Source: an uncultured Planctomycetota bacterium (GTDB lineage: Bacteria > Planctomycetota > Brocadiia > CAIUPP01). Taken from it: DNA of 64,000 nt. The notes under the pieces are model-generated. The model had not been told where the DNA came from. It saw nothing but the letters and a program-made list of their open reading frames with translations, and did not search any database. Location: positions 1 to 64,000 of the forward strand of contig CAIUPP010000100.1 of assembly GCA_903901045.1 (NCBI GenBank), in the 5' to 3' direction. Positions within the stretch are counted from its first letter, which is position 1; every line of letters starts with the position of its first letter. Made by a program: the position numbers and the translations under genes. Positions 2,652 to 50,726 of this stretch are shown one piece after another.

Positions 2652-2687
2652 AACGGGTCTAAAGGCGATTTGCACTGTTGGGTCGAG

Positions 2688-2730
2688 GTGGGGACACAAA
2701 ACTTTCCTTTGGAAAGTATTGTGTCCCCAC
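2688..2730. repeat. REP-like hairpin, GTGGGGACAC family, copy 1
   Basis: Two 20-nt arms pair with one mismatch around a TTT loop; the outer stem is GTGGGGACACAA/TTGTGTCCCCAC. The same 43-bp element occurs at 39243-39285 and, with a TTC loop, at 59938-59980. The sequence GATGGTTTCAACAGAGC lies about 20 bp beyond the hairpin (2750-2766) and also near copy 2, in inverted orientation. Such elements are usually mobilised by RAYT (IS200-like) transposases; none is encoded here. Confidence 0.85.
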
Positions 2731-2807
2731 CGGCCCGACCTGCCGACCGGGATGGTTTCAACAGAGCGAGAGTGATCCAGTTGTCTCTTCCAATTTGGAG
2801 GCGGACC

Positions 2808-5800
2808 ATGCAGCGGCAAAGGTTATCAGTTGTTGTAGCTGTCACGGCAGCTTTGACCCTGGGAGCGATTCAGTTCCCCCTTCAAGCCCAGCAGGGTGTG
2901 CCGACGATGCGAGGCGATGCCGCAGCCGCCATCGCGGCCAGACAGCAGAGGCGCATCACTCCGGCCGATCGCGCCGCCGCTGCGCGCAAGCTCCTTCCGG
3001 GCATGTACGCGGGGCAGGCTGCGCCGGGACCCGGAGGCACGCCGAACTTCTTCGGTCCCATCGGCAACTGGGCCTTCACCCCCAGCCCCACGCTCGACCC
3101 GGTGACGGGCGTCATCTCCGGCGGTCTGCACAAGTTCGTTGACCAACTGCCCGGGCTCGGCTCCGCCAATGCGAACCTCCGCGGACAGTACATTCCCGTC
3201 GCCATCCCCGACCAGTCCACGTTCCAGAACTGCGATTACTACGAAATCGCCGTTAAGGATTACTCCGAGAAGCTGCATGCGGACCTGCCCGCCACGATGC
3301 TCCGGGGGTACTACCAGAAGAACACCAGCGACCTCACCGTGAAGACCAGCCAGTACCTCGGCCCCCTCATCGTCGCCCACAAGAACCGCCCGGTGCGAAT
3401 CAAGTTCGTCAACGAACTGGGAGTGGGGGACCTGGGCAACCTGCTCATTCCGGTGGACACCAGCGTCATGGGCGCGGGCATGGGGCCCGACGGCATGAAC
3501 CTCTTCACCCAGAACCGCGCGAACATCCATCTGCACGGCGGCAACACCCCGTGGATCAGCGACGGCACCCCGCAGCAGTGGATCACCCCCGCGAATGAGA
3601 ACACCACTATCTATACCAAGGGGGTCGGCTTCCAGAACGTTCCCGACATGGTCGGCCTCGGCAAGCTCATCCCGAATCCCACTCCCACCGACGGGGTGGG
3701 GACGTACTACTTTCCGAACCAGCAGAGCAGCCGCCTGTTGTTCTATCACGACCACTGCTATGGCACGACGCGCCTGAACGTCTACTCCGGCGAGGCCGCG
3801 GGCTACCTCGTCACCGACCAGGTCGAGGAAGACCTGATCTCCGGCACCAACGTCTCGCTCGTCAATCCGAATCTGCGCAAGGTCATTCCCGGCACACCGT
3901 TGCCGGACGTCTATCACTGGGGCATCCCGCTCATCATTCAGGATAAGACGTTCGTGGACGCCTCCCGCATCGCCTCCCAGGACCCCACTTGGAACTGGGG
4001 CACGACCCCTCCGACCCCCAACAGCGGCGACCTCTGGTTCCCGCACGTCTACATGCCGAACCAGAACCCGAACGATATCAGCGGCGCGAACTCCGTGGGG
4101 CGCTGGGACTATGGCCCCTGGTTCTGGCCTCCGCTGACCCCCGCCGCGGGGCTCATCCATGGCGAGAAGCTGCTGCCCGACGGGACCCGCACCCCCGGCA
4201 CGCCCAACCCGTCGCTCGTCCCCGAAGCGTTCATGGACACTCCGCTGGTGAACGGCTGCGCCTACCCGGTGCTGCCCGTCGCGCGCACGGCCTACCGCTT
4301 CCGCATTCTCAACGCCTGCAACGACCGCTTCCTTAATCTGCAACTCTACTATGCTGACACCGGCGGCGGCGGGTCCGGCGCGACCGGCGTCGCGACGATT
4401 ACCGGCGTCGTCAACAGCCTCACGGTGCTGACCGGCGGCGCAGGCTACACCTCCGCCCCGACGGTCACTTTCACAGGCGGCAATCCAACCACGCCCGCCA
4501 CCGCCTCGGCCATCGTTGCCGGCGGCGTTGTGACCGGCATCACCCTGACCAGCGGCGGAGCCGGATACACCTCCGCCCCGACGATCGGCTTCAACGGCGG
4601 CGGCGCGACGACCGCCGCCACGGCTGGCGCGACCATCACGAACGTCGTGAGCGCCGTCAATATCAGCGCGGGCGGCGCCAACTACCTCTCCGCGCCCAAC
4701 GTCTACTTCATCGGCGGAGGCGGTTCGGGCGCGATGGCTTCAACGACCGTCGCCGGCGGCGTTGTCACCGGCGTCACGGTGGCGTACGGCGGCAGCGGCT
4801 ACGTCGCGGCCCCCAAGGTGCTGATCGGCAGTTCGCTGGAAGTGAAGATGGTCCCCGCCGTTCCCACGCCCACCTGGCCGGCGACCTGGCCGACCGACGG
4901 CAGGGTCGGCGGCGTTCCGGACCCGGCCACTTCAGGCCCCGATATGATCCAGATCGGCACCGAGGGAGGATTCCTGCCGTTGCCGGCGATCATCCCCGCA
5001 ACCCCGGTCGGGTACGAGTACAACCGCAGGAACATCGTCGTCCTGAACGTCAGCACGCACGCCCTCTTCCTCGGCCCGGCGGAGCGCGCTGACATCATCG
5101 TGGACTTCTCCCAAGTCCCAGCCTCGGCGGATGTGACCAACATCATCCTCTACAATGACGCCCCCGCGCCGGTCCCGGCGTTCGATGGGCGCAACGACTA
5201 CTACACCGGGGATCCGGACCAATCCGTTACGGGCGATCCGGCCACGGGGGGCGGGACGGGCGGCGCGCCCTCGACGCTCCCGGGTTATGGCCCGAACACC
5301 CGCACCATTATGGAGTTCCGGGTGGTTGCCGGCGTCCCGGCCGCGACCGCATTCGACCTCCCCAGCTTGCAGACCATTCTGCCGGCTGCGTTTGCCGCAT
5401 CCCAGGATGCGCCGATCATTCCGCAGACGACGTACCCCGCTCCCTACACGGCCGCAACGGACACCTACTCGCGGATTGAAGACACCTCCCTCTCCTTCAC
5501 CGCGCCCGGGCCGCAGCCGGTCCGGAGCATTACGTTGAAGTCCGGCGGCGCAGGATATTCCTCCGCGCCGACGGTCGGCTTCACTGCCGCCGGCGGCTCC
5601 GGCGCTGCGGCGACCGCCACGATCACCGCGGTCGTCAACGCCATCCAGGTCACCAATCCCGGCTCGGGTTACATTACCACGCCGCTGGTCAGCATCGCCG
5701 GTGGCGGAGGCACGGGCGCCACGGCCACGGCGGTGATCTCCGGCGTGGTCAACGGCGTCACGATCAACAGCGGCGGAACCAACTACACCTCCGCTCCCGC

Positions 5801-36363: not shown

Positions 36364-36549
36364 AGCCGCTCCCTTCGATGACAGAACCATCCCGATTCGC
36401 ACCACCGGACGCCGGTTCGTATTCTATCATTCCTTTTTCTCGCGCGCCGCAAAAACGTCAATCAAAAAAGATGGTAGAATACCGCCGTCGCCTTCGTCGC
36501 CGCGCTCGTCCGCCCACGCGCTTGTCTGACATTGTTGAGAGGGACGGTC

Positions 36550-38514
36550 ATGTCCAGGACAAGAAAGCCGAAAGCCGGGCCGGCCTTTAAACCGGTGAAG
36601 CGGGCGAAAGCGCCGGCCGTGCCGGAACGGCGCGCGGCCCCGCGCAGGAAGGAAGACCGGACGCTGCGCGAAGAGGAGGCCTTCTTCCGGGGCATCTTCG
36701 AGACGGCCGAGGACTGCATCTTCGTCAAGGACAAGGCGCTCCGGTACGTCAGCGTCAATCCCATGATGGAAGAGTTCTTGGGCATTCCCGCGGCCAGGCT
36801 GATCAACCGAACCGACGCCCAACTTTTCGGCAGGCCCTCCGCCAGGCAGGTCCGCGATCATGACCGGCGCGTTCTCCGGGGTGAAACGGTGAAGGCCGAG
36901 GAGACCGTGGCGGTGCCGGGGGGCGCTCCCAGAATCTTCCACGTCATCAAAATCCCGAAGCGCAACGATGCCGGAAAAATCATCGGCCTGTACGGCGTGG
37001 CGCGCGATATCACCGAGATCAAGCAAATCGAGGAGGCGCTGCGCGAAAGCGAGGAGCGCTACCGCGCTATCGTGGAAGGCCAGACGGAAGTCATCTGCCG
37101 GTTCAAGGCCAATGGGGCGTATACCTTCGCCAACAAGGTCTATTGCCGGTTCTTCGGAAAGACCAGCCGGGAGTTGATGGGGAAGAAATGGCAACCGCAG
37201 GTCGTGGCCGAAGACCTGCCGGTGGTCGAGAGGCGCCTGCGAATGCTCTCCCGCGCCAACCCGGTCGTGGTCATCGAGAACCGCGTCTATTCCGGCAGCG
37301 GGGAAGTGCGCTGGATGCAGTTTGTCAACCGCGCCTTCTTCAATGCCGCGGGCCGTTTGGTTGAGACACAAGCCGTCGGTCGCGATATTACCGAACGCAA
37401 GAAGCTGGAGAGCGGCCTGGCCCTCCGTGAGCAGCAACTGAACGCCTTCTTCAGCGGAGCCACCGTCGGGTTGGCGCTGCTGGACAGAGACATCCGCTAC
37501 CTCCGGATCAACGACACTTTGGCCGAGATGAACGGCCTGCCCGTCATGGAGCACATTGGCAGGACCGTCCGCGAAGTGGTGCCCCAGTTGGCGCCCGCGA
37601 TCGAGCCGATATTCCGGAAAGTCCTCCTCACCGGCGAGCCCGTCCTGCACATCGAAATGTCGGGGGAAACGCCGCGCGATCCGGGCGTCGTGCGGCATTG
37701 GGTGGAGTCCTTCTTTCCGGTGACCTCCGTGGCCGGGCGCGTGGAAAGCGCCGGCGCCGTCGTCGTGGAAATCACCGAACTCAAGCGGACGCAGGAGACG
37801 CTGCTGCGTTCGCGGGAGGATATGCGCCTGCTCGCCGCGCGCCTGGCGGAGATTGACGAGGCGGAGCGCAAGCGGCTCTCCCGCGAACTCCATGATCGCG
37901 TCGGTCAGACGCTCACGGCGCTGGGGATCAACCTGGCCCACGTGCTCGAAGAGGTGGCCCCGAGCCTTCGGCCCGGAGTGTTGAGCCGCCTGAAAGAGGC
38001 GTGTTCACAGGCCGAGGCGCTGGCGGACAACATCCGCGGCGTGATGGGGGAATTGCGCCCGGCCGTGCTGGACGATTACGGCCTCGTCGCGGCCCTGCGC
38101 GGGTACGGACAGCAGGTCGCGCGCCGGAGCGGGTTGGCGGTGACGGTCGAGGAGGAGGGGGACATCGGCCGGCTGTCGCCGGAAATCGAGACCGCCCTCT
38201 TCCGCATCGTCCAGGAGGCGGTCACCAACTCGCTGCGCCACGCGCATGCGACGGGCGTGTGCATTACGTGCGAGAAGAACGCGAATCAATGCCGGCTGGT
38301 CGTTGCGGACAACGGCATCGGATTTGACGCGGCCGCCGCGAACGCGCGCAAGACCAATTGGGGACTGGCCATCATGCGGGAACGCGCGCGCGCCGTCGGC
38401 GCTGAACTCTCGGTTCACTCGCGCGCGGGCCGCGGAACCACCCTCGTCGTGTATTTTCCCGCCCCAAACGCGGCGGCGCCGGACGCCTGCGCTATCTTCG
38501 GGAGGCCCTCATGA
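36550..38514 (+). CDS. Soluble triple-PAS NarL-type histidine kinase
   Basis: This 654-aa protein has no membrane helix. A basic N-terminus precedes three PAS domains (about 40-160, 165-285 and 290-420), the first two ending in GVARDITEI- and AVGRDITER-type PAC motifs. HisKA_3 carries its phospho-His in SRELHDRVGQTL (near 447). The HATPase domain shows QEAVTNSLRHAHA and DNGIGFD. The ATG at 36550 follows AGAGGG. Its stop overlaps the start of the LuxR-type regulator as ATGA, so they are a cognate pair sensing a cytosolic or redox-like signal (inference). Confidence 0.92.
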   Translation: MSRTRKPKAGPAFKPVKRAKAPAVPERRAAPRRKEDRTLREEEAFFRGIFETAEDCIFVKDKALRYVSVNPMMEEFLGIPAARLINRTDAQLFGRPSARQVRDHDRRVLRGETVKAEETVAVPGGAPRIFHVIKIPKRNDAGKIIGLYGVARDITEIKQIEEALRESEERYRAIVEGQTEVICRFKANGAYTFANKVYCRFFGKTSRELMGKKWQPQVVAEDLPVVERRLRMLSRANPVVVIENRVYSGSGEVRWMQFVNRAFFNAAGRLVETQAVGRDITERKKLESGLALREQQLNAFFSGATVGLALLDRDIRYLRINDTLAEMNGLPVMEHIGRTVREVVPQLAPAIEPIFRKVLLTGEPVLHIEMSGETPRDPGVVRHWVESFFPVTSVAGRVESAGAVVVEITELKRTQETLLRSREDMRLLAARLAEIDEAERKRLSRELHDRVGQTLTALGINLAHVLEEVAPSLRPGVLSRLKEACSQAEALADNIRGVMGELRPAVLDDYGLVAALRGYGQQVARRSGLAVTVEEEGDIGRLSPEIETALFRIVQEAVTNSLRHAHATGVCITCEKNANQCRLVVADNGIGFDAAAANARKTNWGLAIMRERARAVGAELSVHSRAGRGTTLVVYFPAPNAAAPDACAIFGRPS

Positions 38515-39164
38515 CAATTAAAGTGTTCCTGGCCGACGACCACGCCCTGGTCTCCGAGGGCTTGCGACTCATTCTGGAAAAGCAGAAGGACATCGAGGTC
38601 GTCGGAGTCGCCGCGGACGGACGCGAAGCCGTGCGTCGCGTGCGCGAACTGCATCCCGACGTGGCCATCCTGGACATCGCCATGCCGGAGATGAACGGCG
38701 TGGAGGCCGCGCGGCACCTGGCGGAGCACTGCCCGCGCACGCGGACGCTCATTCTCTCCATGCACTCCACCTCCGAGCACATCTCGCGCGCCCTGTCCGC
38801 CGGCGCCTGCGGCTACGTGCTGAAGGAGTCCGCCGGCTCCGAAGTGGTCGCCGCCGTGCGCGCCGCCAGCGAAGGCAAGCGCTACCTCAGCGCCAAGGTG
38901 GCCGACACCGTCTTCCAGGACTACGCGCAGATGAAGCGCGACGGCGGCAAGAGCAGCCCGATCGAGAAGCTCAGCTTCCGCGAGCGCGAAGTGCTGCAAC
39001 TGGTCGTCGAGGGGAAGTCCAGCAAGCAGATTGCCGAGGTCATCCATCTCTCCCCCAAGACCGTGGAGAGCTACCGCAGCCGCCTGATGGGCAAACTCGG
39101 GGTCAGGGATGTCGCCGGCCTGGTGAAATTCGCCATCGCCAACGGCATAACCACCGAAGCGTAA
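38511..39164 (+). CDS. LuxR/NarL-family response regulator
   Basis: This 217-aa protein has a receiver domain (DDHALVSEGL, phospho-Asp in VAILDIAMPEMNG, Lys in YVLKES). A C-terminal helix-turn-helix (FREREVLQLVVEGKSSKQIA, VESYRSRLMGKLGV) follows. It is translation-coupled to the kinase before it. DNA targets are unknown. The hairpin repeat at 39243 follows its stop by about 80 nt. Confidence 0.94.
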   Translation: MTIKVFLADDHALVSEGLRLILEKQKDIEVVGVAADGREAVRRVRELHPDVAILDIAMPEMNGVEAARHLAEHCPRTRTLILSMHSTSEHISRALSAGACGYVLKESAGSEVVAAVRAASEGKRYLSAKVADTVFQDYAQMKRDGGKSSPIEKLSFREREVLQLVVEGKSSKQIAEVIHLSPKTVESYRSRLMGKLGVRDVAGLVKFAIANGITTEA

Positions 39165-39192
39165 CAGGCGGCTGCGATGGCCGGAAGCTGTC

Positions 39193-39285
39193 TTGCTCTG
39201 TTGAAACCATCGTGACAGCGTGTCGTTCTTCCCGTGGTCGAGGTGGGGACACAAAACTTTCCTTTGGAAAGTATTGTGTCCCCAC
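39193..39285. repeat. REP-like hairpin, GTGGGGACAC family, copy 2
   Basis: The 43-bp hairpin at 39243-39285 is identical to copy 1 (2688-2730), including the preceding GGTCGAG. The companion sequence GATGGTTTCAACAGAGC is also present, here on the minus strand at about 39195-39211, on the other side of the hairpin. Both parts moving together suggests the full unit is larger than the hairpin. Confidence 0.8.
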
Positions 39286-39459
39286 TGGCTCCAGGTTGCA
39301 TGGTTTCCCCACGCGAAGTCGCACACTCTCCCTGCATACTCCCGCCGCAGCACGGGCTACACTCTGTACGCAAGCCGAGTGCTTTCAGGAAGCGAGAAAG
39401 CCGTGGCGCGATCAATACGCAAGGGAAAAAGCGATCCATCGAAACCGTGTCGCCGTGCC

Positions 39460-39861
39460 ATGCAGGCCGGAGGGGGCTCCGGGAAGTCCAAAGCGCGCCG
39501 GAAAATTCTCATCGTGGATGACAACCCGGAAGTCCGACAACCGCTGGCCGCCTGGCTGGTGGCAAAGTTTACGGAGCATTCCGTGATTGAAGCGGAAAAC
39601 GGTGAGTCCTGTTTGAAGCTGGCTGCGCTTCATCATCCGCAAGTTGTGGTGATGGACGTGCGGCTTCCGGGCATGAGCGGCATTGAGGCGGCGCGGCGCA
39701 TCTCGGCAACCATGCCCGACATCGGGATCATCATGCTCTCCGCACACGACGATCAAGCCTATCGCAGGGACGCGGAGTCCGCCGGAGCCAGGAAGTATGT
39801 GCTCAAGGGACGGGCTCACCGGGAACTGCTGCCGGCGATTCGGGACGCGCTGACCCCTTGA
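39460..39861 (+). CDS. Stand-alone receiver-domain protein
   Basis: This 133-aa protein has a short Gly/Lys-rich start and one receiver domain (VDDNPEVRQPL, phospho-Asp in VVVMDVRLPGMSGIEA, MLSAHD, Lys in YVLKGRA). No output domain follows. I start it at the ATG at 39460, although no strong ribosome site is visible; a GTG at 39403 is an alternative. It lies between the NarL-type pair and the chemosensory operon and could serve either. Confidence 0.8.
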   Translation: MQAGGGSGKSKARRKILIVDDNPEVRQPLAAWLVAKFTEHSVIEAENGESCLKLAALHHPQVVVMDVRLPGMSGIEAARRISATMPDIGIIMLSAHDDQAYRRDAESAGARKYVLKGRAHRELLPAIRDALTP

Positions 39862-40091: not shown

Positions 40092-40550
40092 ATGGCCGGA
40101 ACCATGCACATCCTGGCGTACCGCGTGGAAGACCGCTTCTGCGGCCTGCCCCTGTCTGAGGTGGAAAGAGTTGTTCCCGCGGTCGAGGTGATCCCGCTGA
40201 TCGACGCGCCTCCGGCGGTCCTGGGGGTCATCAATGTCGCCGGGGGAGTCCTCCCCGTCGTGAGTGTGCGAAGAGTCCTTGGATTGCCCGAACGGCCGAT
40301 GGAGTTAAGCGACCGCCTCATCATCGCCCGATGGTCCTCGCGCCGGGTGGCGTTGCTCGCGGACTCCGTGGAGGGCGTTCTGGAGAGGAGCGAAAGCGAG
40401 GTGGTTCGGGCCGACCGCATCGTCGACGGCCCATCGCACCTCGACGGCGTCCTCAAGCTCCGGGATGGACTGCTGCTCATTCACGATCTCGAGATGTTTC
40501 TCTCGCTGATCCCGACGGGGGAGTTGCATGAGCCAGCCGCTTGTCAGTGA
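40092..40550 (+). CDS. cheW: CheW-like coupling protein (Wsp-type, first)
   Basis: This 152-aa SH3-like scaffold has the CheW pattern FCGLPLSEVERVVPAVEVIPL and VLGVINVAGGVLPVVSVRRVLGL. It would link the receptor at 42697 to the CheA at 44743. It corresponds in position to WspB. The start at 40092 has a poor ribosome site; 40104 is an alternative. Its last 23 nt overlap cheR. Confidence 0.88.
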   Translation: MAGTMHILAYRVEDRFCGLPLSEVERVVPAVEVIPLIDAPPAVLGVINVAGGVLPVVSVRRVLGLPERPMELSDRLIIARWSSRRVALLADSVEGVLERSESEVVRADRIVDGPSHLDGVLKLRDGLLLIHDLEMFLSLIPTGELHEPAACQ

Positions 40551-41958
40551 CCGTCCGCGCTCGGCCGAAGGGCAAACGGAAGCCCTTCTGCAGGAGTTGG
40601 GCGCTGCCGTGGAGGCGCGGACCGGGCTGCACTTCCCGCAGGAGCGGCGGGGCGATTTGGCGCGCGCCTTGCGCGAGGTCTCCCGGGAACTCGGCTTCGA
40701 AAGCGCTGAGCGGTGTGTTGCGCATCTGCTCAAATGCCGGACGGCGGACCGGGAATTTGAGGCGCTGCTGGGACATCTGACGAACGGCGAGACTTTCTTC
40801 TTCCGCCACATGGAAGCGTTCGACCTCCTGGAGCAGCGCCTCTTGCCGGAGTTGATTCACGCGCGACGCCACGGCGGCAAGCGCTTGCGGATTTGGTGCG
40901 CGGGCTGCTGCACCGGCGAGGAGCCCTACTCCGTCGCCATCCTGCTGGACCGCCTCATTCCCGACCGCCGGAATTGGGACATCTCCCTCCTGGCCACCGA
41001 CGTCAATGCGCGCTTCCTGCAACGAGCGCGGGAAGGCGTCTATACGGAATGGTCCTTCCGCGGCGCGCCGCTCTGGGTGCAACGGCAGTGCTTCGACACT
41101 CTGGGACGCAACCGGTTCGCGATCCGGCCGTATCTGAAGGAGATGGTCACTTTCGCCCGGCACAACCTGGCCGAGGACACGCCTCCCACGTTCCCCGGCA
41201 GCGCCCAAGGGGTGGACCTGCTCTTCTGCCGGAATGTGCTCATTTACTTCGCCCGCGACCGCGCCCGGCAAGTGCTGGGGAACCTTCACAGCCTCCTTGC
41301 GGAGGACGGCCTGCTGGTGGTGGGGCCGAGCGATATGCTGCTCCTGCGCGAAACCTCCTTTACCTCGCTGGACAGCGGCGTCTCCGTTCTCTACCGGAAA
41401 ACCCCGCTCGCTCCAGCGGACTGCCCTCTGTTCCCCGCCGGGGACGTGGCTGGCAGCGCCCCCAAGCTTTCCGGCTGTGCCGAAGCGCAGCACCTCCTCG
41501 GCGAAGCGGCGCGGAAGCCGGCGGCGCGCCGGGCTGAGGCTCCCGTCGCGCCGGACTCGCAGGAAATGCTCCTTCTGGCGCGCCGGTGCGCGAACGAGGG
41601 GGCGCATGACGAGGCGCTTGATCTGTGCCGCAAGGCCATTGCCGCCGACGCGACAAACCCGGTCGCCCATTATTTCCAGGGGACCATCCTCATGGAACGC
41701 GGCGAGCTCGCTGCCGCCGGCATCTGCTTGAGGCGGGCGCTCTTCCTGGAACAGGGGTTTGTGATGGCGCATTTCACGCTGGGCCATATCGCTCGCGCGC
41801 AAGGGAAGCCGAAGGCCGCCGGGAAACATTTCGTCAATGCGCTCGAATGGACCCTCCGCTATCGTCCGGACGATCCCCTGCCCGAGGCCGACGGCATGAC
41901 GGCGGGCCGCCTTGCGGAAATTCTGGCCCCCCTGGCTGAAAGGGAGGAGGAACGATGA
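40528..41958 (+). CDS. cheR: CheR-type receptor methyltransferase with TPR tail
   Basis: This 476-aa protein has an N-terminal CheR helical domain, then the SAM-binding motif IWCAGCCTGEEPYS (near 122-135) and VDLLFCRNVLIYF. A long C-terminal part contains tetratricopeptide-like repeats (AHDEALDLCRKAIAADATNPVAHY). This fusion is the WspC layout. It methylates receptor glutamates for adaptation. The ATG at 40528 follows GGGGGAG inside the preceding cheW. Confidence 0.94.
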   Translation: MSQPLVSDRPRSAEGQTEALLQELGAAVEARTGLHFPQERRGDLARALREVSRELGFESAERCVAHLLKCRTADREFEALLGHLTNGETFFFRHMEAFDLLEQRLLPELIHARRHGGKRLRIWCAGCCTGEEPYSVAILLDRLIPDRRNWDISLLATDVNARFLQRAREGVYTEWSFRGAPLWVQRQCFDTLGRNRFAIRPYLKEMVTFARHNLAEDTPPTFPGSAQGVDLLFCRNVLIYFARDRARQVLGNLHSLLAEDGLLVVGPSDMLLLRETSFTSLDSGVSVLYRKTPLAPADCPLFPAGDVAGSAPKLSGCAEAQHLLGEAARKPAARRAEAPVAPDSQEMLLLARRCANEGAHDEALDLCRKAIAADATNPVAHYFQGTILMERGELAAAGICLRRALFLEQGFVMAHFTLGHIARAQGKPKAAGKHFVNALEWTLRYRPDDPLPEADGMTAGRLAEILAPLAEREEER

Positions 41959-42659
41959 ACCCGTCCGATTCATCCGCCAACCCCGGCCCTGACCAGCCGC
42001 TCGCGTATGCCCCGGCGGGTGCTGCGCGATGGGACGCAATTCGCGCGCGCATGGAGGCGGTTCGCCTGCGCGCCGAGCGCGGCTGGGACCCGAGCTCTTC
42101 CGAAGCGAAGGAGATGTTGCGAACCCGCGCGCGCCGGCTTGCCACGCCCCCCAAGCCGGATGAAGACCAGGCGCGGATTGGAGTCGTCCTGTTCCATCTG
42201 GCCGGCGAGACGTATGCCGTCGAGTCCCTCTACGTCCGGGGGGTGCACCCGCTCAAGACCCTCACGCCCCTTCCGGGCGCGCCGGCGTTCGTCCTGGGAA
42301 TCACCAACCTGCGCGGGGAAATCCTCTCCGTCATAGACCTCAAGAAATTCTTCGGCCTGCCGGAGAAGGGGCTGACCGACCTGAGCACGGTGATCGTCCT
42401 CCAGTCCGATGTCATGCAGTTCGGCATTCTGGCCGATGAAGTGGTTGCAGCGCAGGTCATTCCGGTCAGCCGCATCCAGCCGGCGCTGCCCACCCTGACG
42501 GGCGTTCGCGAGAAGTATCTCAGGGGGGTCACCGAAGAGCGCGTGGTCATTCTGGACGCGTCCGCGCTGCTGGCGGATGACACTCTGATCGTCTGCGACG
42601 AGGTGGAGGGCCGGCCGGGATCCGGCGTGGCGCAAGCCTCCTCGCCTGGGCAGGATTAG
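41955..42659 (+). CDS. cheW: CheW-like coupling protein (Wsp-type, second)
   Basis: This 234-aa protein has a charged N-terminal extension of about 70 residues and then a CheW domain (VVLFHLAGETYAVESLYVRGVHPL, FVLGITNLRGEILSVIDLKKFFGL). It matches WspD in position, and the presence of two different CheW proteins is a Wsp hallmark. The start overlaps cheR as ATGA. The long N-terminal extension may select a different partner from the first CheW (inference). Confidence 0.9.
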   Translation: MNPSDSSANPGPDQPLAYAPAGAARWDAIRARMEAVRLRAERGWDPSSSEAKEMLRTRARRLATPPKPDEDQARIGVVLFHLAGETYAVESLYVRGVHPLKTLTPLPGAPAFVLGITNLRGEILSVIDLKKFFGLPEKGLTDLSTVIVLQSDVMQFGILADEVVAAQVIPVSRIQPALPTLTGVREKYLRGVTEERVVILDASALLADDTLIVCDEVEGRPGSGVAQASSPGQD

Positions 42660-42696
42660 CTCAAATCCGTATTCCACACGTTCAAAGGAGGAGACC

Positions 42697-44661
42697 ATGC
42701 CGAACTTGTTTGCCAGAAGCCTGATGAACAAATTGGTGCTGGCGTTCGTGCTGGCCGCCCTAGTCCCGATGGCCGTCGTGGGGTACTGGAGCTACTCGAG
42801 CGGCAAGGCGACGCTGGGGGAGCACGCCCGGATCGAGATGGAAGCGATTGCCGACGCCCGCGAGGCCGCCATCATCGCGTATCTGAGCCGCGTCCGCGCG
42901 CGCGTCATGGACTTTTCCAGCGACAGCCGCCTGCGAGATGACCTTGAAAAGATGAGCGCGCGACCCGCCGAAGCCGCTCAAATCGGTCGCGAGTTGGGGG
43001 AGTACCTGAAGCTGGACAAAATGCCCCTCACTTCCAACGGCTACGAAATGCAGGTCCTGGATTTGACCGGCAAAGTGGTCGCCTCCACCAACGGCGCTTC
43101 GATCGGCAAGGACAAGTCCGAGGAGCCGTGCTTTGCGTCGACCGCGGCAAGGGGCGCGCACATCGAGGACCTGTTCATGTCGGAAGCCACCGGCAAGCCC
43201 ACCCTGCTCACCGCCTCGCCGATACAGAGCTGGCCGGCCAAAAAAGAACTCGGCGTCCTGGTCTACCTGCTGGACACCGTCGCCTTGAATGCCGTCACCA
43301 CCGATGATACCGGAATGGGCCAGACCGGGGAGGTTTATATCGTCAACCGCGATGGGCTCATGATCACGGACTCGCGGCACGTCAAGGAGGCTGCGTTCAA
43401 ACAGAAAGTGAACACTCCGCCGGTCCGGCTGATGCTGGACGAGCAGAAGACGATGGTAGGCACCTACACGGGATACCGGGGAACTCGCGTGTTCGGGGCG
43501 TCGCGCGGCGACGGCATCGACAAGGCCTATGGCCTTCCCTGGGTGCTTATCGCCACCATCGAGGAAGGCGAGGCTGTTGCGCCATCGCGCGCCCTGGGGA
43601 TGCAGGTCGTCTGGGCCGGGCTGGTCATGGCCATCCTCGCCGCGCTCTTCGCCCTGTTCATGGCGCGCGGCATCTCCCTGCCGATTCGCAACACCGCCGC
43701 GCAGACGGCGCGCATTGCGCAAGGGGACCTGACCGCGCCGATGAGCGGCGCCAAACGCGCCGATGAGATCGGCTTGCTGACGGACTCTTTCGGCCGGATG
43801 GTGTCGAGCCTTTCCCAGCAGACACGGGATATCACGCAAGCGGTCAACGTGCTGGCCACCTCGGCGACGGAGATTTCCGCGACCGTTTCGCAACTGGCGG
43901 CCGGCTCGGCGGAAACCGCCGCATCGGTGACTCAGACCACCGCGACCATCGAGGAACTGAAGCAGACGGCGGACCTTTCCGCGCAGAAGGCAAGGGAAGT
44001 CTCCGACAGCGCCCTGCGCACCGCCCAAGTCTCCCAGACCGGCGAGGCGGCGGTGGCCGCCGCCTCCGAAAGCATGCGCGGCATCCGCGACCAGATGGAA
44101 GCCGTCGCCGAAAGCGTCGTGAAGCTCAGCGAGCAAAGCCAGGCCATCGGGCAGATCGTGGCCACGGTGGACGATCTCGCCGAGCAATCGAACCTTCTCT
44201 CGGTCAACGCCGCCATCGAAGCGGCCAAGGCGGGGGAGCAGGGCAAGGGGTTCGGCGTCGTTGCGCAGGAGGTCAAGAACCTGGCGGAACAGTCCAAGCA
44301 GGCGACGGCCCAGATACGCGGAATCCTCAACGACATTCAGAAGGCCACCAGCGGCGCGGTGATGGCGACCGAACAGGCCGGCAAGGCGGTGGCGCTCGGG
44401 GAGGGGCAGTCGGTGAAGGCGGGGGAGGCGATTCAGACGCTGGCGCAGAGTATTCGGGAGGCCTCCCAGGCCGCGGCGCAGATCGCCGCCTCCAGCCGCC
44501 AGCAACTGACTGGCGTCGAGCAAGTGACCACGGCCATGGAGAGCATCAAGGAAGCCAGCAACCAGTACGTCACCGGCACCCAGCAACTGGAGTCGGCGGC
44601 CCGGAACATCGACGATCTGGGCAAGCGGCTGCAAGGATTGGTGGCGCACTACAAAGTGTAG
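42697..44661 (+). CDS. Methyl-accepting chemotaxis protein (WspA-like)
   Basis: This 654-aa receptor has a membrane helix at about 12-32 and a large periplasmic double-Cache domain (about 35-300). A second helix (about 303-325), a HAMP domain (ARGISLPIRNTAAQTARIAQGDL) and a long signalling coiled coil follow. The hairpin tip reads DDLAEQSNLLSVNAAIEAAKAGEQG-, close to the universal consensus but with Asp/Ser changes. No C-terminal CheR-binding pentapeptide is present. A clear GGAG site precedes the ATG. Confidence 0.93.
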   Translation: MPNLFARSLMNKLVLAFVLAALVPMAVVGYWSYSSGKATLGEHARIEMEAIADAREAAIIAYLSRVRARVMDFSSDSRLRDDLEKMSARPAEAAQIGRELGEYLKLDKMPLTSNGYEMQVLDLTGKVVASTNGASIGKDKSEEPCFASTAARGAHIEDLFMSEATGKPTLLTASPIQSWPAKKELGVLVYLLDTVALNAVTTDDTGMGQTGEVYIVNRDGLMITDSRHVKEAAFKQKVNTPPVRLMLDEQKTMVGTYTGYRGTRVFGASRGDGIDKAYGLPWVLIATIEEGEAVAPSRALGMQVVWAGLVMAILAALFALFMARGISLPIRNTAAQTARIAQGDLTAPMSGAKRADEIGLLTDSFGRMVSSLSQQTRDITQAVNVLATSATEISATVSQLAAGSAETAASVTQTTATIEELKQTADLSAQKAREVSDSALRTAQVSQTGEAAVAAASESMRGIRDQMEAVAESVVKLSEQSQAIGQIVATVDDLAEQSNLLSVNAAIEAAKAGEQGKGFGVVAQEVKNLAEQSKQATAQIRGILNDIQKATSGAVMATEQAGKAVALGEGQSVKAGEAIQTLAQSIREASQAAAQIAASSRQQLTGVEQVTTAMESIKEASNQYVTGTQQLESAARNIDDLGKRLQGLVAHYKV

Positions 44662-44742
44662 AAGCTGTCCGGAACGGCGGAGCGCGTGATCCGACCCGCG
44701 CCACATTCCGGGTGCTGCAACAGCTTCCAGAAGGAAGAGCCG

Positions 44743-47091
44743 ATGGCGAGGAAGGATGACTTCCTGGAGAAACTGCTTTCCACGTTCAGGGTGGAGGCGG
44801 CCGAGCACGTCAGCGCGCTTTCGTCGGGGCTGCTCGAACTGGAGCGCACGGCGGACGCGGCGGCGCGCGCCCCCGTCGTGGAGCGCATCTACCGGGAAGC
44901 GCACAGCCTGAAAGGGGCGGCCCGCGCCGTGGACCTGGGCGACGTGGAGGCGGTCTGCCAATCGCTCGAAAGCGTCTTTGCCCGCTGGAAGGCAGGCCGG
45001 CTCGCCCCGGACGCTCCCATGTTCGAATTGCTCCACCGGACGGTGGACCTCGCGGCGCGGCTCGTCGAATCCTCCGGCAAAGTGGGGACCGGTCAGGTCA
45101 GCGAACTCCTCGGTAAATTGGCCGAAGCAGTGCGCGATGCCCCCGCGGAAGGCAAATCAGCCGAGGGTTGCTCGCCCGTGGGGGCGCGGCAGCCTGCGTC
45201 CACGGCCGAGGAGAAGGCATGCCCCGCCCCTGCAGCGAATCCCGTCAGCCAGGCGGCGGAGACGCCGTCCGAGGCTGCGTCCCCCGAGCGCTCCACTGGC
45301 GCACCGCGGCGGACGGACTCGGCTGAAACGATCCGCGTCTCCGCAACGCGGCTGGACTCCCTTCTCTTTCAAACCGAGGAAATGCTCTCCGCGAAGCTCA
45401 CCGTAGCTCAGCGCGCCTCGGAACTGGCTGAACTGCGCGCTGGTTTCGGGGAGTGGAAGAAGGAATGGGCCCGGCTTGCCCCCCATTTGCGGGAGGTCGC
45501 GGACCCCCGGGGGAAACGCAGTTCCGGGGGTGTGAAGGATTCGCTTCCCAAGGTCGTGGAGTTCCTTCAGTGGAACCGCGCGCACGTCGCGGGGCTGGAA
45601 ACGAAGCTGGCCGCCCTGGCGACCGCTACGCGAAACGACGCCCGTTCGGTCGGCGCCATGGTGGACAACCTGCTCGGGGACATGAAGAAGGTGCTCATGC
45701 TTCCTTTCGCGCTCCTGCTGGAGCCTTTCCCCCGGATGGTTCGCGAGCTTTCCCGCGACCAGGGCAAGGAAGTGGAATTGGAGGCGCAGGGGGCCGGCGT
45801 GGAGGTGGACAAGCGCATTCTGGAGGAACTCAAGGACCCCCTCATGCACCTTGTGCGCAACAGCGTCGACCACGGGATCGAGCGGCCGGAGGAGCGGACT
45901 CGGCTTGGGAAGCCGGGCCGCGGCACGATCCGCATCGCCGTCGCGCAAGTTGAGACCAACCTGGTCGATATACTGATCTCCGACGATGGGGCGGGGATCG
46001 ACCTGGAGAAGGTCAAGGAAAAAGCGGTTCAGATGGGCCTGCTCTCGGCGGCGGAAGCCGCCACGGCGGACGAGGCGTCGGCGTACTCGCTGATCTACCA
46101 GTCCGGCGTTTCCACCAGCCCCATCATCACGGACCTCTCCGGTCGGGGGCTGGGCCTCGCCATCGTGCGGGAGAAAGTGGACAAACTGGGCGGCCGCGTC
46201 TCCGTGCAGAGCGCGCCGGGCGCCGGGACCACCTTCCGGCTCCTCCTGCCGCTCACGCTGGCCACGTTCCGCGGCGCTTTCGTCGAAGCGGGGGGGCAGA
46301 GTTTCGTCATCCCCACCAGCCACGTGGAGCGCGTGGTCAGGGTGCGCGCGGAGGATATCGGGACGATGGAGAACCGCGAGGCGATCACCCTGAATGGGCG
46401 AGCCGTTTCACTGGTGCATCTGGGCGATGTATTGGGGCTGCGCCGCCCTCCCTCCAACGAGCCGCTCCACTTCCAGCAGGTTCTCGTGCTCTGGGCGGGG
46501 GAGAAGCGCATTGCGTTTGCCGTGGACCGCGTCCTGAACGAGCAGGAAGTCCTCGTCAAGGGGCTCGGCAGGCAGCTCAAGCGCGTGCGGAACATCGGCG
46601 GGGCGGCCCTCCTGGGATCGGGGCAGGTGGTTCCCATCCTCAACGTGCCCGATTTGCTGAAGTCCGCCGTCGGAGTCATGGGGGTTCCCGCGGCCTCGCT
46701 GGCTGAGCCGGCGCACCGGCCCAAAGCGAACGCCGCCATCCTGATCGCCGAAGATTCCATCACCTCCCGCATGCTGCTCAAGAACATTTTGGAGTCTTCC
46801 GGCTACCGCGTCAGGACCGCCATGGACGGCGCGGAGGCTTTCACGGCGCTCAAGACCGAGCCGTTCGACCTGGTCGTTTCGGATATCGACATGCCGAAGA
46901 TGAGCGGATTCGAGCTGACCGAGAGAATCCGCGCCGACAAGCAGTTGACGGACCTCCCGGTCGTGCTGGTCACCGGCCTGGGTTCCAGGGAACATCGCGA
47001 GCGAGGCGTCGCGGCCGGCGCCAACGCCTATATCGTCAAGAGCAGTTTCGACCAGAGCAATCTGCTCGAAACGGTCCGAAGGCTTCTCTAA
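44743..47091 (+). CDS. cheA: CheA hybrid histidine kinase with receiver (WspE-like)
   Basis: This 782-aa kinase starts at 44743, behind AAGGA. The Hpt domain has its phospho-His at H54 (YREAHSLKGAARAV). An Ala/Pro-rich linker (about 125-205), dimerisation and HATPase domains (HLVRNSVDHGIE, DDGAGI, GRGLGLAIV), a CheW-like regulatory domain and a C-terminal receiver (VVSDIDMPKMSGFEL) follow. P2 is not recognisable. The terminal receiver matches WspE and probably competes for phosphate. Part of the linker (45212-45235) resembles a decayed GGGCnnnnCATG repeat. Confidence 0.94.
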   Translation: MARKDDFLEKLLSTFRVEAAEHVSALSSGLLELERTADAAARAPVVERIYREAHSLKGAARAVDLGDVEAVCQSLESVFARWKAGRLAPDAPMFELLHRTVDLAARLVESSGKVGTGQVSELLGKLAEAVRDAPAEGKSAEGCSPVGARQPASTAEEKACPAPAANPVSQAAETPSEAASPERSTGAPRRTDSAETIRVSATRLDSLLFQTEEMLSAKLTVAQRASELAELRAGFGEWKKEWARLAPHLREVADPRGKRSSGGVKDSLPKVVEFLQWNRAHVAGLETKLAALATATRNDARSVGAMVDNLLGDMKKVLMLPFALLLEPFPRMVRELSRDQGKEVELEAQGAGVEVDKRILEELKDPLMHLVRNSVDHGIERPEERTRLGKPGRGTIRIAVAQVETNLVDILISDDGAGIDLEKVKEKAVQMGLLSAAEAATADEASAYSLIYQSGVSTSPIITDLSGRGLGLAIVREKVDKLGGRVSVQSAPGAGTTFRLLLPLTLATFRGAFVEAGGQSFVIPTSHVERVVRVRAEDIGTMENREAITLNGRAVSLVHLGDVLGLRRPPSNEPLHFQQVLVLWAGEKRIAFAVDRVLNEQEVLVKGLGRQLKRVRNIGGAALLGSGQVVPILNVPDLLKSAVGVMGVPAASLAEPAHRPKANAAILIAEDSITSRMLLKNILESSGYRVRTAMDGAEAFTALKTEPFDLVVSDIDMPKMSGFELTERIRADKQLTDLPVVLVTGLGSREHRERGVAAGANAYIVKSSFDQSNLLETVRRLL

Positions 47092-47109
47092 CGCGGAAAG
47101 CGGCGCAGA

Positions 47110-48165
47110 ATGGTGCGAGTCCTGATCGTGGACGACTCCCTCGTTGCGCGGACGCATTTGATGCAGTTGCTGCGCTCGGACGGTGCCATCGCCGTCGCGG
47201 GCGAGGCGGTCAATGGCGCAGAAGCCATCGAGTTCGTCCAGCGCGAGAAAGTGGACGTTGTCCTCATGGACATGTACATGCCCACGGTGGACGGATACGA
47301 AGCGACGCGCACCATCATGGAAAGAACGCCGCTCCCCATCATCATCCTGACGTCGAGTTGGGACCCTCAGGACGTGGACAACACCTTCCGCGCGCTGGAA
47401 GCGGGGGCCGTGGCCGTTCTGGCAAAGCCCAGAAGCCTGGCGCATCCCGATGGGAAGGACCAGGCGGCGAAGGTCATTGAGACCGTCAAACTGATGTCGG
47501 AGGTGCGCGTCATCAAGCGTTGGCCGAAACGACTCATACCCTCGGCCCCTCTCGGGAACTTTCAGGCAGGTCCGGCGTCGGGGCGCGCCGGGGTGGAGGT
47601 GGTCGCCGTTGGCGCTTCCACCGGGGGACCGCCCGCGCTTCGCGCGATTCTCTCGGGGCTTCCGGCGGACTGCCGCACTCCCGTACTGATCGTGCAGCAC
47701 ATCGCCAAGGGATTCCTCCCCGGGTTGGTGCGCTGGCTGGGCGGGGCGACGCCGCTGCCCGTCCGAATCCCCGGCGAGGGAGACCGCATGGAACTGGGGC
47801 ATATCTACCTGGCGCCCGACGGCGTGCACATGGGAGTTACCCGCGCCGGCATCATCGTCCTGAGCGGCGCGCCGCCGGAGTACGGGTCGCGCCCCGCAGT
47901 CGCTCACCTCTTTCGCTCGGTGGCGCAGGAATTCGGCCGCAACTCCGCCGCGGTGCTCCTGACGGGAATGGGGCGCGACGGCGCCGCCGAACTCGCGGCG
48001 ATCAAGCGCGCCGGCGGCGTGACTTTTGCGCAGGACAAGTTCAGTTCCGTTGTTCACGGCATGCCCGGGGAGGCGATCAGCCTCGGGGCGGTCGGCTACG
48101 TGCTCACGCCGCCGGAAATCGCCAAAGCATTGGCGTCGCTGGTTGCCACGGGAGGCGCGGCGTGA
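47110..48165 (+). CDS. cheB: CheB-type receptor methylesterase (WspF-like)
   Basis: This 351-aa protein has a receiver domain (D8, D9, D54 in VLMDMYMP) and a C-terminal methylesterase. Its catalytic Ser-His-Asp are in VGASTGGPPALRAIL, VQHIAKGFLPG and LTGMGRDGAAEL. It removes methyl groups (or deamidates) on the receptor and opposes CheR, which gives adaptation. It follows cheA by 18 nt. In Wsp systems loss of this protein locks the pathway on. Confidence 0.94.
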   Translation: MVRVLIVDDSLVARTHLMQLLRSDGAIAVAGEAVNGAEAIEFVQREKVDVVLMDMYMPTVDGYEATRTIMERTPLPIIILTSSWDPQDVDNTFRALEAGAVAVLAKPRSLAHPDGKDQAAKVIETVKLMSEVRVIKRWPKRLIPSAPLGNFQAGPASGRAGVEVVAVGASTGGPPALRAILSGLPADCRTPVLIVQHIAKGFLPGLVRWLGGATPLPVRIPGEGDRMELGHIYLAPDGVHMGVTRAGIIVLSGAPPEYGSRPAVAHLFRSVAQEFGRNSAAVLLTGMGRDGAAELAAIKRAGGVTFAQDKFSSVVHGMPGEAISLGAVGYVLTPPEIAKALASLVATGGAA

Positions 48166-48191
48166 ATCCCCAGGGAGATGGAGGGCTAACC

Positions 48192-50726
48192 ATGTCACAC
48201 GCCAAAGAGATCCTGATCGCCGAGGACAGCCCGACGCAGGCCGAGCGGCTCAAACACAGCCTGGAAACGCACGGCTGCGCCGTTTCGGTCGCCGTCAACG
48301 GAAAGAAAGCCCTTGAGGCGATGCGCCTGCGAAAACCGGCGCTGGTGATCAGCGACGTCATGATGCCGGAAATGGATGGCTACGAACTCTGCCGGCAGGT
48401 CAGAAAGGATGAGAACCTCGCGGACGTTCCCGTCATTCTGCTCACCTCCCTGGGGGACGTCAAGGATGTGCTCCAGAGCCTGGAATGCGGCGCGCACCAT
48501 TTCATCACCAAGCCCTACGACGAGGCGGAGCTCTTCTCGCGCATCGAGTACGTCCTTTCGAATAAGCAGTTTCGCAGGAACAAGCGGGTGGACGTTGGCC
48601 TGGAGATATACTTCGGCGGGCAGAAGTATTTCATCAGCTCGGAACATATGCAGATACTCGACCTGCTCCTCTCGACCTACGAGGCGGCGGTGAAGAAGAA
48701 CCAGGTCGCCACCAGGGCGACGGATGAACTTCGGTCGCTCAACGAGCAGTTGGAGGATAAAGTCAAAGCGCGCACAGCCGCCCTCACGATGGAAATCGCC
48801 GAGCGCGAGCATGCGGAGAAGGAACTGCAATTCAGGAACGTCATTCTGTCCACTCAGCAGGAAGCCTCGCTGGACGGGATTCTCGTGGTCGACGAGAACG
48901 CCCGGATCGTCTCCTACAACCGCCGGTTCATCGAAATGTGGGGCATTCCTTCCGAACTGGTCGAGAAGAAGGATGACGAACCCGTCCTGCGGTTGGTAGC
49001 CGACAAGGTGGCCGATGCCCGGTCATTCATTGAGCGCGTTCAGTACCTCTACGAGCACCGGCAGGAGTCCTGCGGGGACGAAGTCCGTCTGAAGAGCGGC
49101 AGCGTCTTCGACCGCTACTCCGCCCCGATGCTTGGAACGAACGGTCAGTATTTCGGACGCGTCTGGTATTTCCGTGACATCACCGAGCGCAAGCAAGCGG
49201 AGTTGGCGCTGCGGAGGGTCAACCGCGCCCTGAAAGTCACCAGCGACTGCAACCAGGTGCTTATTCGCGCCACCGAAGAGACGGCGCTGCTCAATGACGT
49301 CTGCCGGGTCCTCGTGTCCGTGGGGGGGTACGACTTTGCGTGGGTCGGCTACGTGGAGCAGAACCCTGATCGGCTGAGTTCCCCGGTGGCGTATGCGGGG
49401 CGGAGCAGGGAACTGGCCATGTTCGCTGCGGGCGCGATGGACGCGGAGGAAGCCAAGAGCCGCCCCGCGAATGTCGCCATCCGCACGCGCAAACCCTGCG
49501 TGATGCAGTGCGCGGATAACCGGCCTGACCTGAGTTCCTGGCAGCTTCAAATGCGCAAGGCCGGCTACGCCTCGGCGGCGGCTTTTCCCCTCTTCATTCA
49601 GGGGCGCGTACTGGGGGTGCTCAGCATGTATGCGGCAAACCCGGAGACCTTCGCCGGGGATGAAATGAGGCTCCTCTCCGAAATGGCCGACGACCTCGCT
49701 TTCGGCGTCCAGACCATCCGCCAGCGCGTCGAGCATGCCAAGGCCGCCGAGACGCTGCGGGAGAACGAGGAACGCTATCACCATCTCTTTGAGAGCCTCT
49801 ACGACGCGGCCTTCCTGGCCGACGGGAAGACGGGGATCATCCTCGACGCGAATCGCCAGGCGGAGGTTCTCCTGGGGAAGAGCCGCGTCGAAATCGTCGG
49901 CGCGCACCAGTCCGAACTTCACCCGCCGCAGCAGGAGGCAGAGATACGGGAGGGGTTCCGCGCGGCCGCTGCGCACAACAGCACCATCCACGAACGCGAG
50001 GTAATCCGAAAGGATGGAACGGTCGTCCCGGTGAGCATCAGCGCTTCACGGCTGACGATCGGCGGGAACAGCCTCGTCCTCGGGTTGTTCCGGGACATCA
50101 CGGGAGTCCGGCGGGCGGAGATGAACCTGAAGGACAGCGCCGCGAAGTTGCAGCAGATGATGGAGGGAAGCATCAAGGCGATGGGCTCGGCGCTGGAGGC
50201 CCGCGACCCCTACACCGCCGGCCACGAGCGCCGCGTGTCGCAACTTGCCTTCGCCATCGCCGGCCGGATGGGGCTGGACGAGGGAACGCGCGAGGGCATC
50301 CGCATCACCGGTTATGTCCACGACATCGGCAAGATCGCCGTCCCCGCGGAGATTCTCTCCAAGCCGGGCAAAATCAGCGATTTCGAGTTCGGCATCATCC
50401 GCACCCATCCCCAGTCCGGCTACGATATTCTCAAAGAGATTGACTTCCTCTGGCCCGTCGCCGCCGCCACGCTGCAACACCACGAGCGGCTCGACGGTTC
50501 CGGCTATCCGCAGGGGCTCCGGGGGGATCAGATCATCATCGAGGCCAGAATCCTGGCGGTGGCCGACGTCGTGGAAGCCATGTCCTCGCACCGTCCCTAC
50601 CGCGCCGCCCTCGGCATCGCCAAGGCGTTGGATGAAATTACGCAGAAGAAAGGAACGCTTTACGACTCGTCGGCCGTGGACGCCTGCGTGAAGCTGTTCC
50701 AAGAGGAGGGATTCAAGTTCGGCTGA
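48192..50726 (+). CDS. Receiver-PAS-GAF-PAS-HD-GYP phosphodiesterase
   Basis: This 844-aa protein starts at 48192, six bases after GGAGGG. In order it has a receiver (D55 in VISDVMMPEMDG), a coiled coil (about 150-215), a PAS domain (about 220-335), a GAF domain (about 345-510), a second PAS (about 525-640) and an HD-GYP domain. HD is at 710-711 in GYVHDIGKIAVP, HHERLDGSGYP is near 763-773, and ADVVEAM follows. HD-GYP enzymes hydrolyse c-di-GMP. It sits where Wsp systems have the diguanylate cyclase WspR, so the expected output is c-di-GMP breakdown rather than synthesis. No GGDEF motif is present. Confidence 0.92.
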   Translation: MSHAKEILIAEDSPTQAERLKHSLETHGCAVSVAVNGKKALEAMRLRKPALVISDVMMPEMDGYELCRQVRKDENLADVPVILLTSLGDVKDVLQSLECGAHHFITKPYDEAELFSRIEYVLSNKQFRRNKRVDVGLEIYFGGQKYFISSEHMQILDLLLSTYEAAVKKNQVATRATDELRSLNEQLEDKVKARTAALTMEIAEREHAEKELQFRNVILSTQQEASLDGILVVDENARIVSYNRRFIEMWGIPSELVEKKDDEPVLRLVADKVADARSFIERVQYLYEHRQESCGDEVRLKSGSVFDRYSAPMLGTNGQYFGRVWYFRDITERKQAELALRRVNRALKVTSDCNQVLIRATEETALLNDVCRVLVSVGGYDFAWVGYVEQNPDRLSSPVAYAGRSRELAMFAAGAMDAEEAKSRPANVAIRTRKPCVMQCADNRPDLSSWQLQMRKAGYASAAAFPLFIQGRVLGVLSMYAANPETFAGDEMRLLSEMADDLAFGVQTIRQRVEHAKAAETLRENEERYHHLFESLYDAAFLADGKTGIILDANRQAEVLLGKSRVEIVGAHQSELHPPQQEAEIREGFRAAAAHNSTIHEREVIRKDGTVVPVSISASRLTIGGNSLVLGLFRDITGVRRAEMNLKDSAAKLQQMMEGSIKAMGSALEARDPYTAGHERRVSQLAFAIAGRMGLDEGTREGIRITGYVHDIGKIAVPAEILSKPGKISDFEFGIIRTHPQSGYDILKEIDFLWPVAAATLQHHERLDGSGYPQGLRGDQIIIEARILAVADVVEAMSSHRPYRAALGIAKALDEITQKKGTLYDSSAVDACVKLFQEEGFKFG

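What the first reader, a model, noticed from the sequence alone, without database searches (positions are those of the whole stretch)
40092..50726. Wsp-like chemosensory cluster whose output is an HD-GYP phosphodiesterase
Gene content (two CheW, CheR-TPR, MCP, CheA with receiver, CheB) matches Wsp, which normally ends in the diguanylate cyclase WspR. Here the receiver protein at the end is REC-PAS-GAF-PAS-HD-GYP with no GGDEF. The logical sign of the pathway would be reversed: receptor activation leads to loss of c-di-GMP. The extra PAS and GAF domains add further inputs.
Basis: partly seen in the sequence, partly recalled or inferred. Interest (0 to 1): 0.7.

Follow-up and report, generated by a model that had tools for sequence, protein, structure and literature searches.

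The report
Chemosensory cluster ending in HD-GYP phosphodiesterase
A flagellum-less planctomycete carries one complete bacterial "chemosensory" signalling cluster whose output is probably an enzyme that destroys a cyclic-dinucleotide messenger; the cluster belongs to a widespread known class in which this output position is exchanged between enzyme types.

Summary
40092-50726 is one compact operon, CheW / CheR-TPR / CheW / dCache receptor / CheA-REC / CheB / REC-PAS-GAF-PAS-HD-GYP, with no GGDEF. In this 94%-complete Brocadiia (Planctomycetota) genome it is the only CheA, CheR and receptor found. No FliG or EAL was found; there are nine GGDEF and about nine HD-GYP proteins. The 'Wsp with reversed sign' reading is only partly supported. 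Gene order is rotated relative to Wsp, CheA falls outside an R-type Wsp kinase, and the receptor has a dCache domain. The cluster belongs to a broad ACF lineage (80 named loci, over a dozen phyla) with a conserved order and a terminal slot after CheB. Slot regulators share REC plus an unnamed linker (70 of 73 slot proteins, 9 of 102 others); the output is swapped: mostly histidine kinase, also GGDEF, degenerate-GGDEF-EAL, SpoIIE and, only here, HD-GYP. PDE-type output in this slot is thus not unique, and HD-domain outputs in CheR-TPR clusters were listed in 2012. The HD-GYP keeps seven of eight PmGH metal ligands (E185 is Tyr). The sign cannot be read from sequence: in the REC-HD-GYP AsrR, dephosphorylation activates the enzyme.

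The parts
40092..40550 (+). CheW adaptor 1 (ATG at 40092 or 40104)
   Evidence: PF01584 2.5e-23; starts
40528..41958 (+). CheR methyltransferase with C-terminal TPR
   Evidence: PF01739 2.2e-48, TPR_2 9.7e-08; only CheR found in the genome
41955..42659 (+). CheW adaptor 2
   Evidence: PF01584 2.8e-30
42697..44661 (+). Chemoreceptor: dCache_1, HAMP, MCP signalling domain
   Evidence: only MCPsignal match in the genome
44743..47091 (+). CheA: Hpt (phospho-His 54), HATPase, CheW, C-terminal REC; no H-kinase_dim (PF02895) or P2 match
   Evidence: invariant HSLKGA, N/G boxes; only CheA found in the genome
47110..48165 (+). CheB: REC + methylesterase
   Evidence: PF01339 1.3e-55
48192..50726 (+). 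Slot response regulator, 844 aa: REC-LINK-PAS-GAF-PAS-HD-GYP
48213..48548 (+). REC domain of the slot regulator; phospho-Asp 55, with D12, T85, K107 kept
   Evidence: invariant in 51 slot regulators
48549..48890 (+). LINK: helix, beta-hairpin and long signalling helix between REC and the first PAS; no Pfam family
   Evidence: 70/73 slot RRs vs 9/102 other REC proteins; no Pfam; AF2 model pLDDT 87.7, hairpin 136-147, helix 151-233
50187..50672 (+). HD-GYP domain (HD_5): HDIGK, HHERLDGSGYP; Tyr at the E185 position of PmGH
   Evidence: PF13487 2.6e-37; PDB alignments; ligand list PMC4159591
39460..39861 (+). Stand-alone REC protein just upstream of the operon; possible second phosphoacceptor (membership uncertain)
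   Evidence: PF00072 3.8e-25; similar upstream single RECs in several survey loci

Best explanation
An ACF-class (non-motility) chemosensory pathway whose dedicated output is degradation of a cyclic dinucleotide. Stimulus at the dCache receptor changes CheA autophosphorylation through the two CheW proteins; CheR-TPR and CheB set adaptation (inferred from the families). CheA-P passes its phosphate to its own REC, to CheB and to the REC of the slot regulator (inferred from synteny and from the lineage-specific REC-LINK). Phosphorylation alters the dimer through the hairpin and long signalling helix, and, together with the PAS/GAF/PAS inputs, gates the HD-GYP, which hydrolyses c-di-GMP (most likely to pGpG, as a presumed binuclear enzyme) or 3'3'-cGAMP. 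The regulator is a domain chimera: a slot-type REC-LINK joined to a PAS-HD-GYP module common in Planctomycetota. Shown: gene content, order, domains, conserved catalytic residues, the chimera pattern. Inferred: phosphotransfer, activity, substrate. Undetermined: whether phosphorylation raises or lowers the activity.
For: Domains and compact operon. Sole CheA, CheR and MCP found in the genome and no FliG, so the operon appears self-contained and is not driving a flagellum. Nine GGDEF proteins, all with GG[DE]EF motifs, none a plain REC-GGDEF, and no EAL: c-di-GMP is probably made, and HD-GYPs are the only c-di-GMP PDE class found. Slot position and LINK tie the regulator to CheA across phyla; the nearest relatives by REC-LINK (L084, L086) are also among the nearest by CheA. 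The C-terminal PAS-HD-GYP is 40-48% and the HD-GYP 50-60% identical to LINK-less Planctomycetota proteins, and the HD-GYP 53% identical to a paralog in the same genome. Seven of eight metal ligands plus D183 and K225 equivalents are kept.
Against: No biochemistry. E185 to Tyr and D308 to Glu differ from PmGH. The best PDB hit is a cGAMP phosphodiesterase. A stand-alone REC lies just upstream and CheA has its own REC, so other phosphoacceptors exist. HD-GYP immediately after CheB was seen in no other locus of the survey, so conservation does not vouch for this particular pairing. The genome is 154 contigs, 94% complete, so absences are provisional.
Confidence: 0.72

Rival explanations
1. One reading: a Wsp system with reversed sign; receptor activation phosphorylates and switches on the PDE, so c-di-GMP falls.
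For: Same gene set as Wsp, HD-GYP instead of GGDEF.
Against: Different gene order and CheA clade. In AsrR, phosphorylation goes with low PDE activity and a dCache ligand lowers kinase activity, so kinase activation could preserve c-di-GMP, as in Wsp.
Confidence: 0.35
2. The substrate is mainly 3'3'-cGAMP or pGpG rather than c-di-GMP.
For: The top PDB match by sequence is a 3'3'-cGAMP-specific phosphodiesterase, which has the same Tyr-type motif ('PYTAGH').
Against: Nine GGDEF proteins with intact motifs and no EAL make c-di-GMP turnover by HD-GYPs the expected function; some V. cholerae HD-GYPs cleave both (PMC8177086).
Confidence: 0.2
3. The main target of CheA is another receiver (the upstream REC at 39460-39861, the HK/LuxR pair at 36532-39164, or an unlinked GGDEF protein), and the HD-GYP regulator is secondary.
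For: Upstream REC proteins occur in several survey loci; the window has one 230 bp upstream.
Against: The slot after CheB is the conserved position, with lineage-specific REC-LINK; no REC-GGDEF of WspR type in the genome; the LuxR regulator sits next to its own HisKA_3 kinase.
Confidence: 0.15
4. The HD-GYP is catalytically silent and serves as a binding or interaction module.
For: E185 is Tyr and D308 is Glu; D308A impaired PmGH.
Against: E185A in PmGH kept some activity; a Y/F subfamily is large and contains active enzymes such as the cGAMP phosphodiesterase; D to E is conservative and shared by many relatives.
Confidence: 0.12

Closest known systems
ACF-class chemosensory pathways with CheR-TPR (Garcia-Fontana et al. 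2012, PMC3447774)
   Same: CheR-TPR, multidomain response regulator, no flagellar link; that survey lists HK, GGDEF, EAL and 'metal-dependent phosphatase cd00077' (which I recognise as the HD-domain family) as outputs, often with PAS/GAF.
   Different: The individual cluster and its REC-LINK-PAS-GAF-PAS-HD-GYP are not described there; the supplementary table could not be read.
Wsp R-system (WspA-F, WspR)
   Same: Same protein set; CheA with C-terminal REC; CheR-TPR; two CheW.
   Different: Order rotated, receptor dCache not 4HB, output HD-GYP not GGDEF, LINK present, about 33% CheA identity to the Azoarcus R-type kinase.
Burkholderia Wsp H-system (WspH hybrid histidine kinase)
   Same: Precedent for swapping the output behind the Wsp core (PMC8552884).
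   Different: Output is a kinase and its gene lies 5' of the cluster.
Beta/gammaproteobacterial slot regulators REC-LINK-GAF-GAF-degenerate GGDEF-EAL (Nitrosospira, Sideroxydans, Sulfuriferula, Methylobacter)
   Same: Same gene order and slot, same LINK, predicted PDE output.
   Different: EAL instead of HD-GYP; a separate clade of CheA.
AsrK-AsrR of Vibrio furnissii and RpfC-RpfG
   Same: REC-HD-GYP regulator driven by phosphorylation; AsrK senses through a periplasmic dCache_1.
   Different: A simple two-component pair, not a CheA array.
Lysobacter Wsp with the WspR-RpfG complex (PMC9758175)
   Same: A Wsp system coupled to an HD-GYP protein (title and abstract).
   Different: Coupled through WspR and RpfG interaction, not an HD-GYP in the cluster.

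Membership tests
Wsp R-system | Gene set MCP, two CheW, CheR-TPR, CheA-REC, CheB, response regulator | tested here: met
Wsp R-system | Gene order MCP-CheW-CheR-CheW-CheA-CheB-RR | tested here: not met
   Window order CheW-CheR-CheW-MCP-CheA-CheB-RR; R-type order seen in Azoarcus L174
Wsp R-system | Output REC-GGDEF | tested here: not met
   No GGDEF by Pfam
Wsp R-system | CheA groups with R-type WspE | tested here: not met
   FastTree of 87 CheA: Azoarcus R-type kinase outside the 84-row 98* clade; one WspE only, long branch, survey centred on the window
Wsp R-system | WspA-like receptor (4HB_MCP_1) | tested here: not met
   dCache_1 4.5e-13; 4HB in WspA per PMC8846402
ACF chemosensory class with CheR-TPR | CheR-TPR plus multidomain response regulator in one cluster | tested here: met
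   definition in PMC3447774
ACF chemosensory class with CheR-TPR | Not tied to flagella | tested here: met
   No FliG_N in the 94%-complete genome; type IV pili not tested
ACF chemosensory class with CheR-TPR | Assignment by the published class-specific CheA profile | not tested
   Class profiles are not among the libraries here
HD-GYP phosphodiesterases | HD, HHE and GYP motifs | tested here: met
   HDIGK, HHERLDGSGYP; PF13487 2.6e-37
HD-GYP phosphodiesterases | All eight ligands of the trinuclear (E/D-T-G) subfamily | tested here: not met
   Tyr at E185: belongs with the Y/F, presumed binuclear subfamily
HD-GYP phosphodiesterases | Hydrolysis of a cyclic dinucleotide | not testable with these tools
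   needs purified protein

The most novel reading that the evidence does not exclude
A chemosensory lineage spread over many phyla uses a standard 'socket', REC plus hairpin and signalling helix after CheB, into which different enzymes (histidine kinase, diguanylate cyclase, EAL or HD-GYP phosphodiesterase, SpoIIE phosphatase) have been exchanged. The window is a natural HD-GYP swap that turns the sole array of a flagellum-less bacterium into a dedicated cyclic-dinucleotide degradation pathway, possibly with sign opposite to Wsp.
Probability: 0.4. Interest if true: 0.6.

Novelty: new member of a known kind. Interest (0 to 1): 0.38.

Why it matters
It shows that the output of a chemosensory array can be exchanged while receptor, kinase and adaptation genes stay fixed, and gives a case where an array is predicted to destroy rather than make a second messenger. 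The shared REC-LINK gives a testable hypothesis for how one CheA lineage drives different enzymes. It also corrects the label 'Wsp' for a common cluster type.

Tried and rejected
Searched 392 Planctomycetota genomes with the whole regulator (only two candidates per genome were scored): strong matches covered only PAS/GAF-HD-GYP parts; annotation of those loci found no LINK. Three attempts at a phylum-wide CheA search failed on the server, and named loci could not serve as centres, so the frequency of HD-GYP in the slot rests on the 84-locus survey. Considered a WspR-like REC-GGDEF elsewhere as the true target: none found. Considered a flagellar CheY-type role: no FliG. LINK matches no Pfam family, and the fold search of REC-LINK found only receiver-containing structures among the best 50. 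No paper describing an HD-GYP in a Wsp-type cluster by name was found; full text of subscription journals is not searched.

Full report
WHAT IS THERE. Seven genes on the + strand, 40092-50726, overlap or lie within 81 bp of each other. Pfam gives CheW, CheR-TPR, CheW, dCache_1-HAMP-MCPsignal, Hpt-HATPase-CheW-REC, REC-CheB and REC-PAS-GAF-PAS-HD_5. No GGDEF or EAL is in the last protein.

GENOME. The window lies on contig C100 of a 4.77-Mb, 154-contig genome, 94.1% complete. It has one CheR, one MCP, one CheA, no FliG_N, nine GGDEF matches, ten HD_5 matches in about nine proteins and no EAL. All nine GGDEF carry GG[DE]EF; none is a simple REC-GGDEF. So the operon is the only array found, the cell is probably not flagellated, and HD-GYP is the only c-di-GMP PDE class found.

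THE LINEAGE. A CheA alignment recovered 80 named loci; with class relatives added and duplicates removed, 84 were classified. The order CheW-CheR-CheW-MCP-CheA-CheB-response regulator is conserved over more than a dozen phyla by record title. The gene after CheB carries a histidine kinase in 47 loci, GGDEF-EAL in 10, GGDEF in 4, HD-GYP in 1 (the window), other or unclassified in 12, and is cut or absent in 10. The ten GGDEF-EAL regulators have eroded GGDEF motifs in most cases (S/AD.F type) and largely complete EAL signatures, so they are predicted PDEs. L139 has REC-SpoIIE. Several loci have REC-HD-GYP proteins further downstream (L085, L092, L112, L118, L122). On the CheA tree at least five changes of output class are needed, and the window is one of them.

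SLOT-SPECIFIC LINKER. A stretch after REC with no Pfam family is found in 70 of 73 slot regulators but 9 of 102 other REC proteins in the same loci, most of those nine being extra copies near the slot. The profile was seeded with the window, so this is a homology statement, not an independent test. AlphaFold2 on 51 sequences (mean pLDDT 87.7) predicts a beta-hairpin and then one long helix. Identity of CheA (without REC) and of REC-LINK correlate across 51 loci (rho 0.49; pairs are not independent), and the window's nearest neighbours overlap.

CHIMERA. REC-LINK of the window is up to 58% identical to slot regulators but about 35% to the REC of other REC-HD-GYP proteins. Its PAS-HD-GYP part is 40-48% identical, and its HD-GYP alone 50-60% identical, to Planctomycetota proteins that lack LINK; the HD-GYP is 53% identical to a paralog (L074) in the same genome. 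The simplest account is exchange of the output module behind an old REC-LINK.

CATALYSIS. Against PmGH the metal ligands H189, H221, D222, H250, H276, H277 and D305 are kept, as are D183 and K225; E185 is Tyr and D308 is Glu (alignment, residues from PMC4159591). This puts it in the Y/F subfamily presumed binuclear. The nearest solved relative is a 3'3'-cGAMP phosphodiesterase. Activity is likely, substrate not settled.

SIGN. The claim that receptor activation lowers c-di-GMP needs two facts not in the sequence: the effect of stimulus on CheA, and of phosphorylation on the PDE. AsrR of V. furnissii, REC-HD-GYP under a dCache kinase, is activated when dephosphorylated (PMC11796354). The sign is open.

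IS IT WSP? It works like Wsp in outline (array to cyclic-dinucleotide enzyme), but three tested features fail: gene order, receptor domain and output; and the Azoarcus R-type kinase falls outside its CheA clade. It fits the ACF class with CheR-TPR, whose published output list already includes EAL and an HD-family 'metal-dependent phosphatase' (cd00077; that this is the HD family is my knowledge). Hence new member of a known kind.

Noticed in passing
L033 7671-8627, L034 10797-11753 (class relatives G026, G021): In two Brocadiia relatives a REC-less 318-aa HD-GYP-type protein sits between CheW and CheA, while two tandem REC-LINK-GGDEF proteins follow CheB: maker and breaker in one cluster.
   Followed up: partly
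L088, L090, L094, L104, L114, L121, L126, L151, L152, L162 (slot regulators): Beta/gammaproteobacterial slot regulators have mostly eroded GGDEF motifs and intact EAL signatures, so PDE-type output is common in this slot there.
   Followed up: yes
L139 9140-10366: Slot regulator is REC-SpoIIE (PP2C-type phosphatase), in the CheA clade nearest the window.
   Followed up: partly
window 36532-39861: Three-PAS HisKA_3 kinase, LuxR-type regulator and a stand-alone REC protein directly upstream of the operon, same strand.
   Followed up: partly
G000:C112:12169-13281 (L077/L082): One protein of the window's genome carries two HD-GYP-like domains in tandem.
   Followed up: no
L126 and L142: MAG records titled Klebsiella pneumoniae and Akkermansia muciniphila carry this cluster with CheA sequences grouping elsewhere; the record titles or bins are probably wrong.
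   Followed up: no
L084, L086, L155 (archaeal MAGs); L128, L135 (Chlamydiae MAGs): The same cluster appears in MAGs labelled Methanosarcinales, ANME-2, Methanomicrobiales and Chlamydiae; transfer or binning error not resolved.
   Followed up: no
window 2670-8138: 1822-aa ORF with a multicopper-oxidase match and a C-terminal fibronectin type III domain.
   Followed up: no
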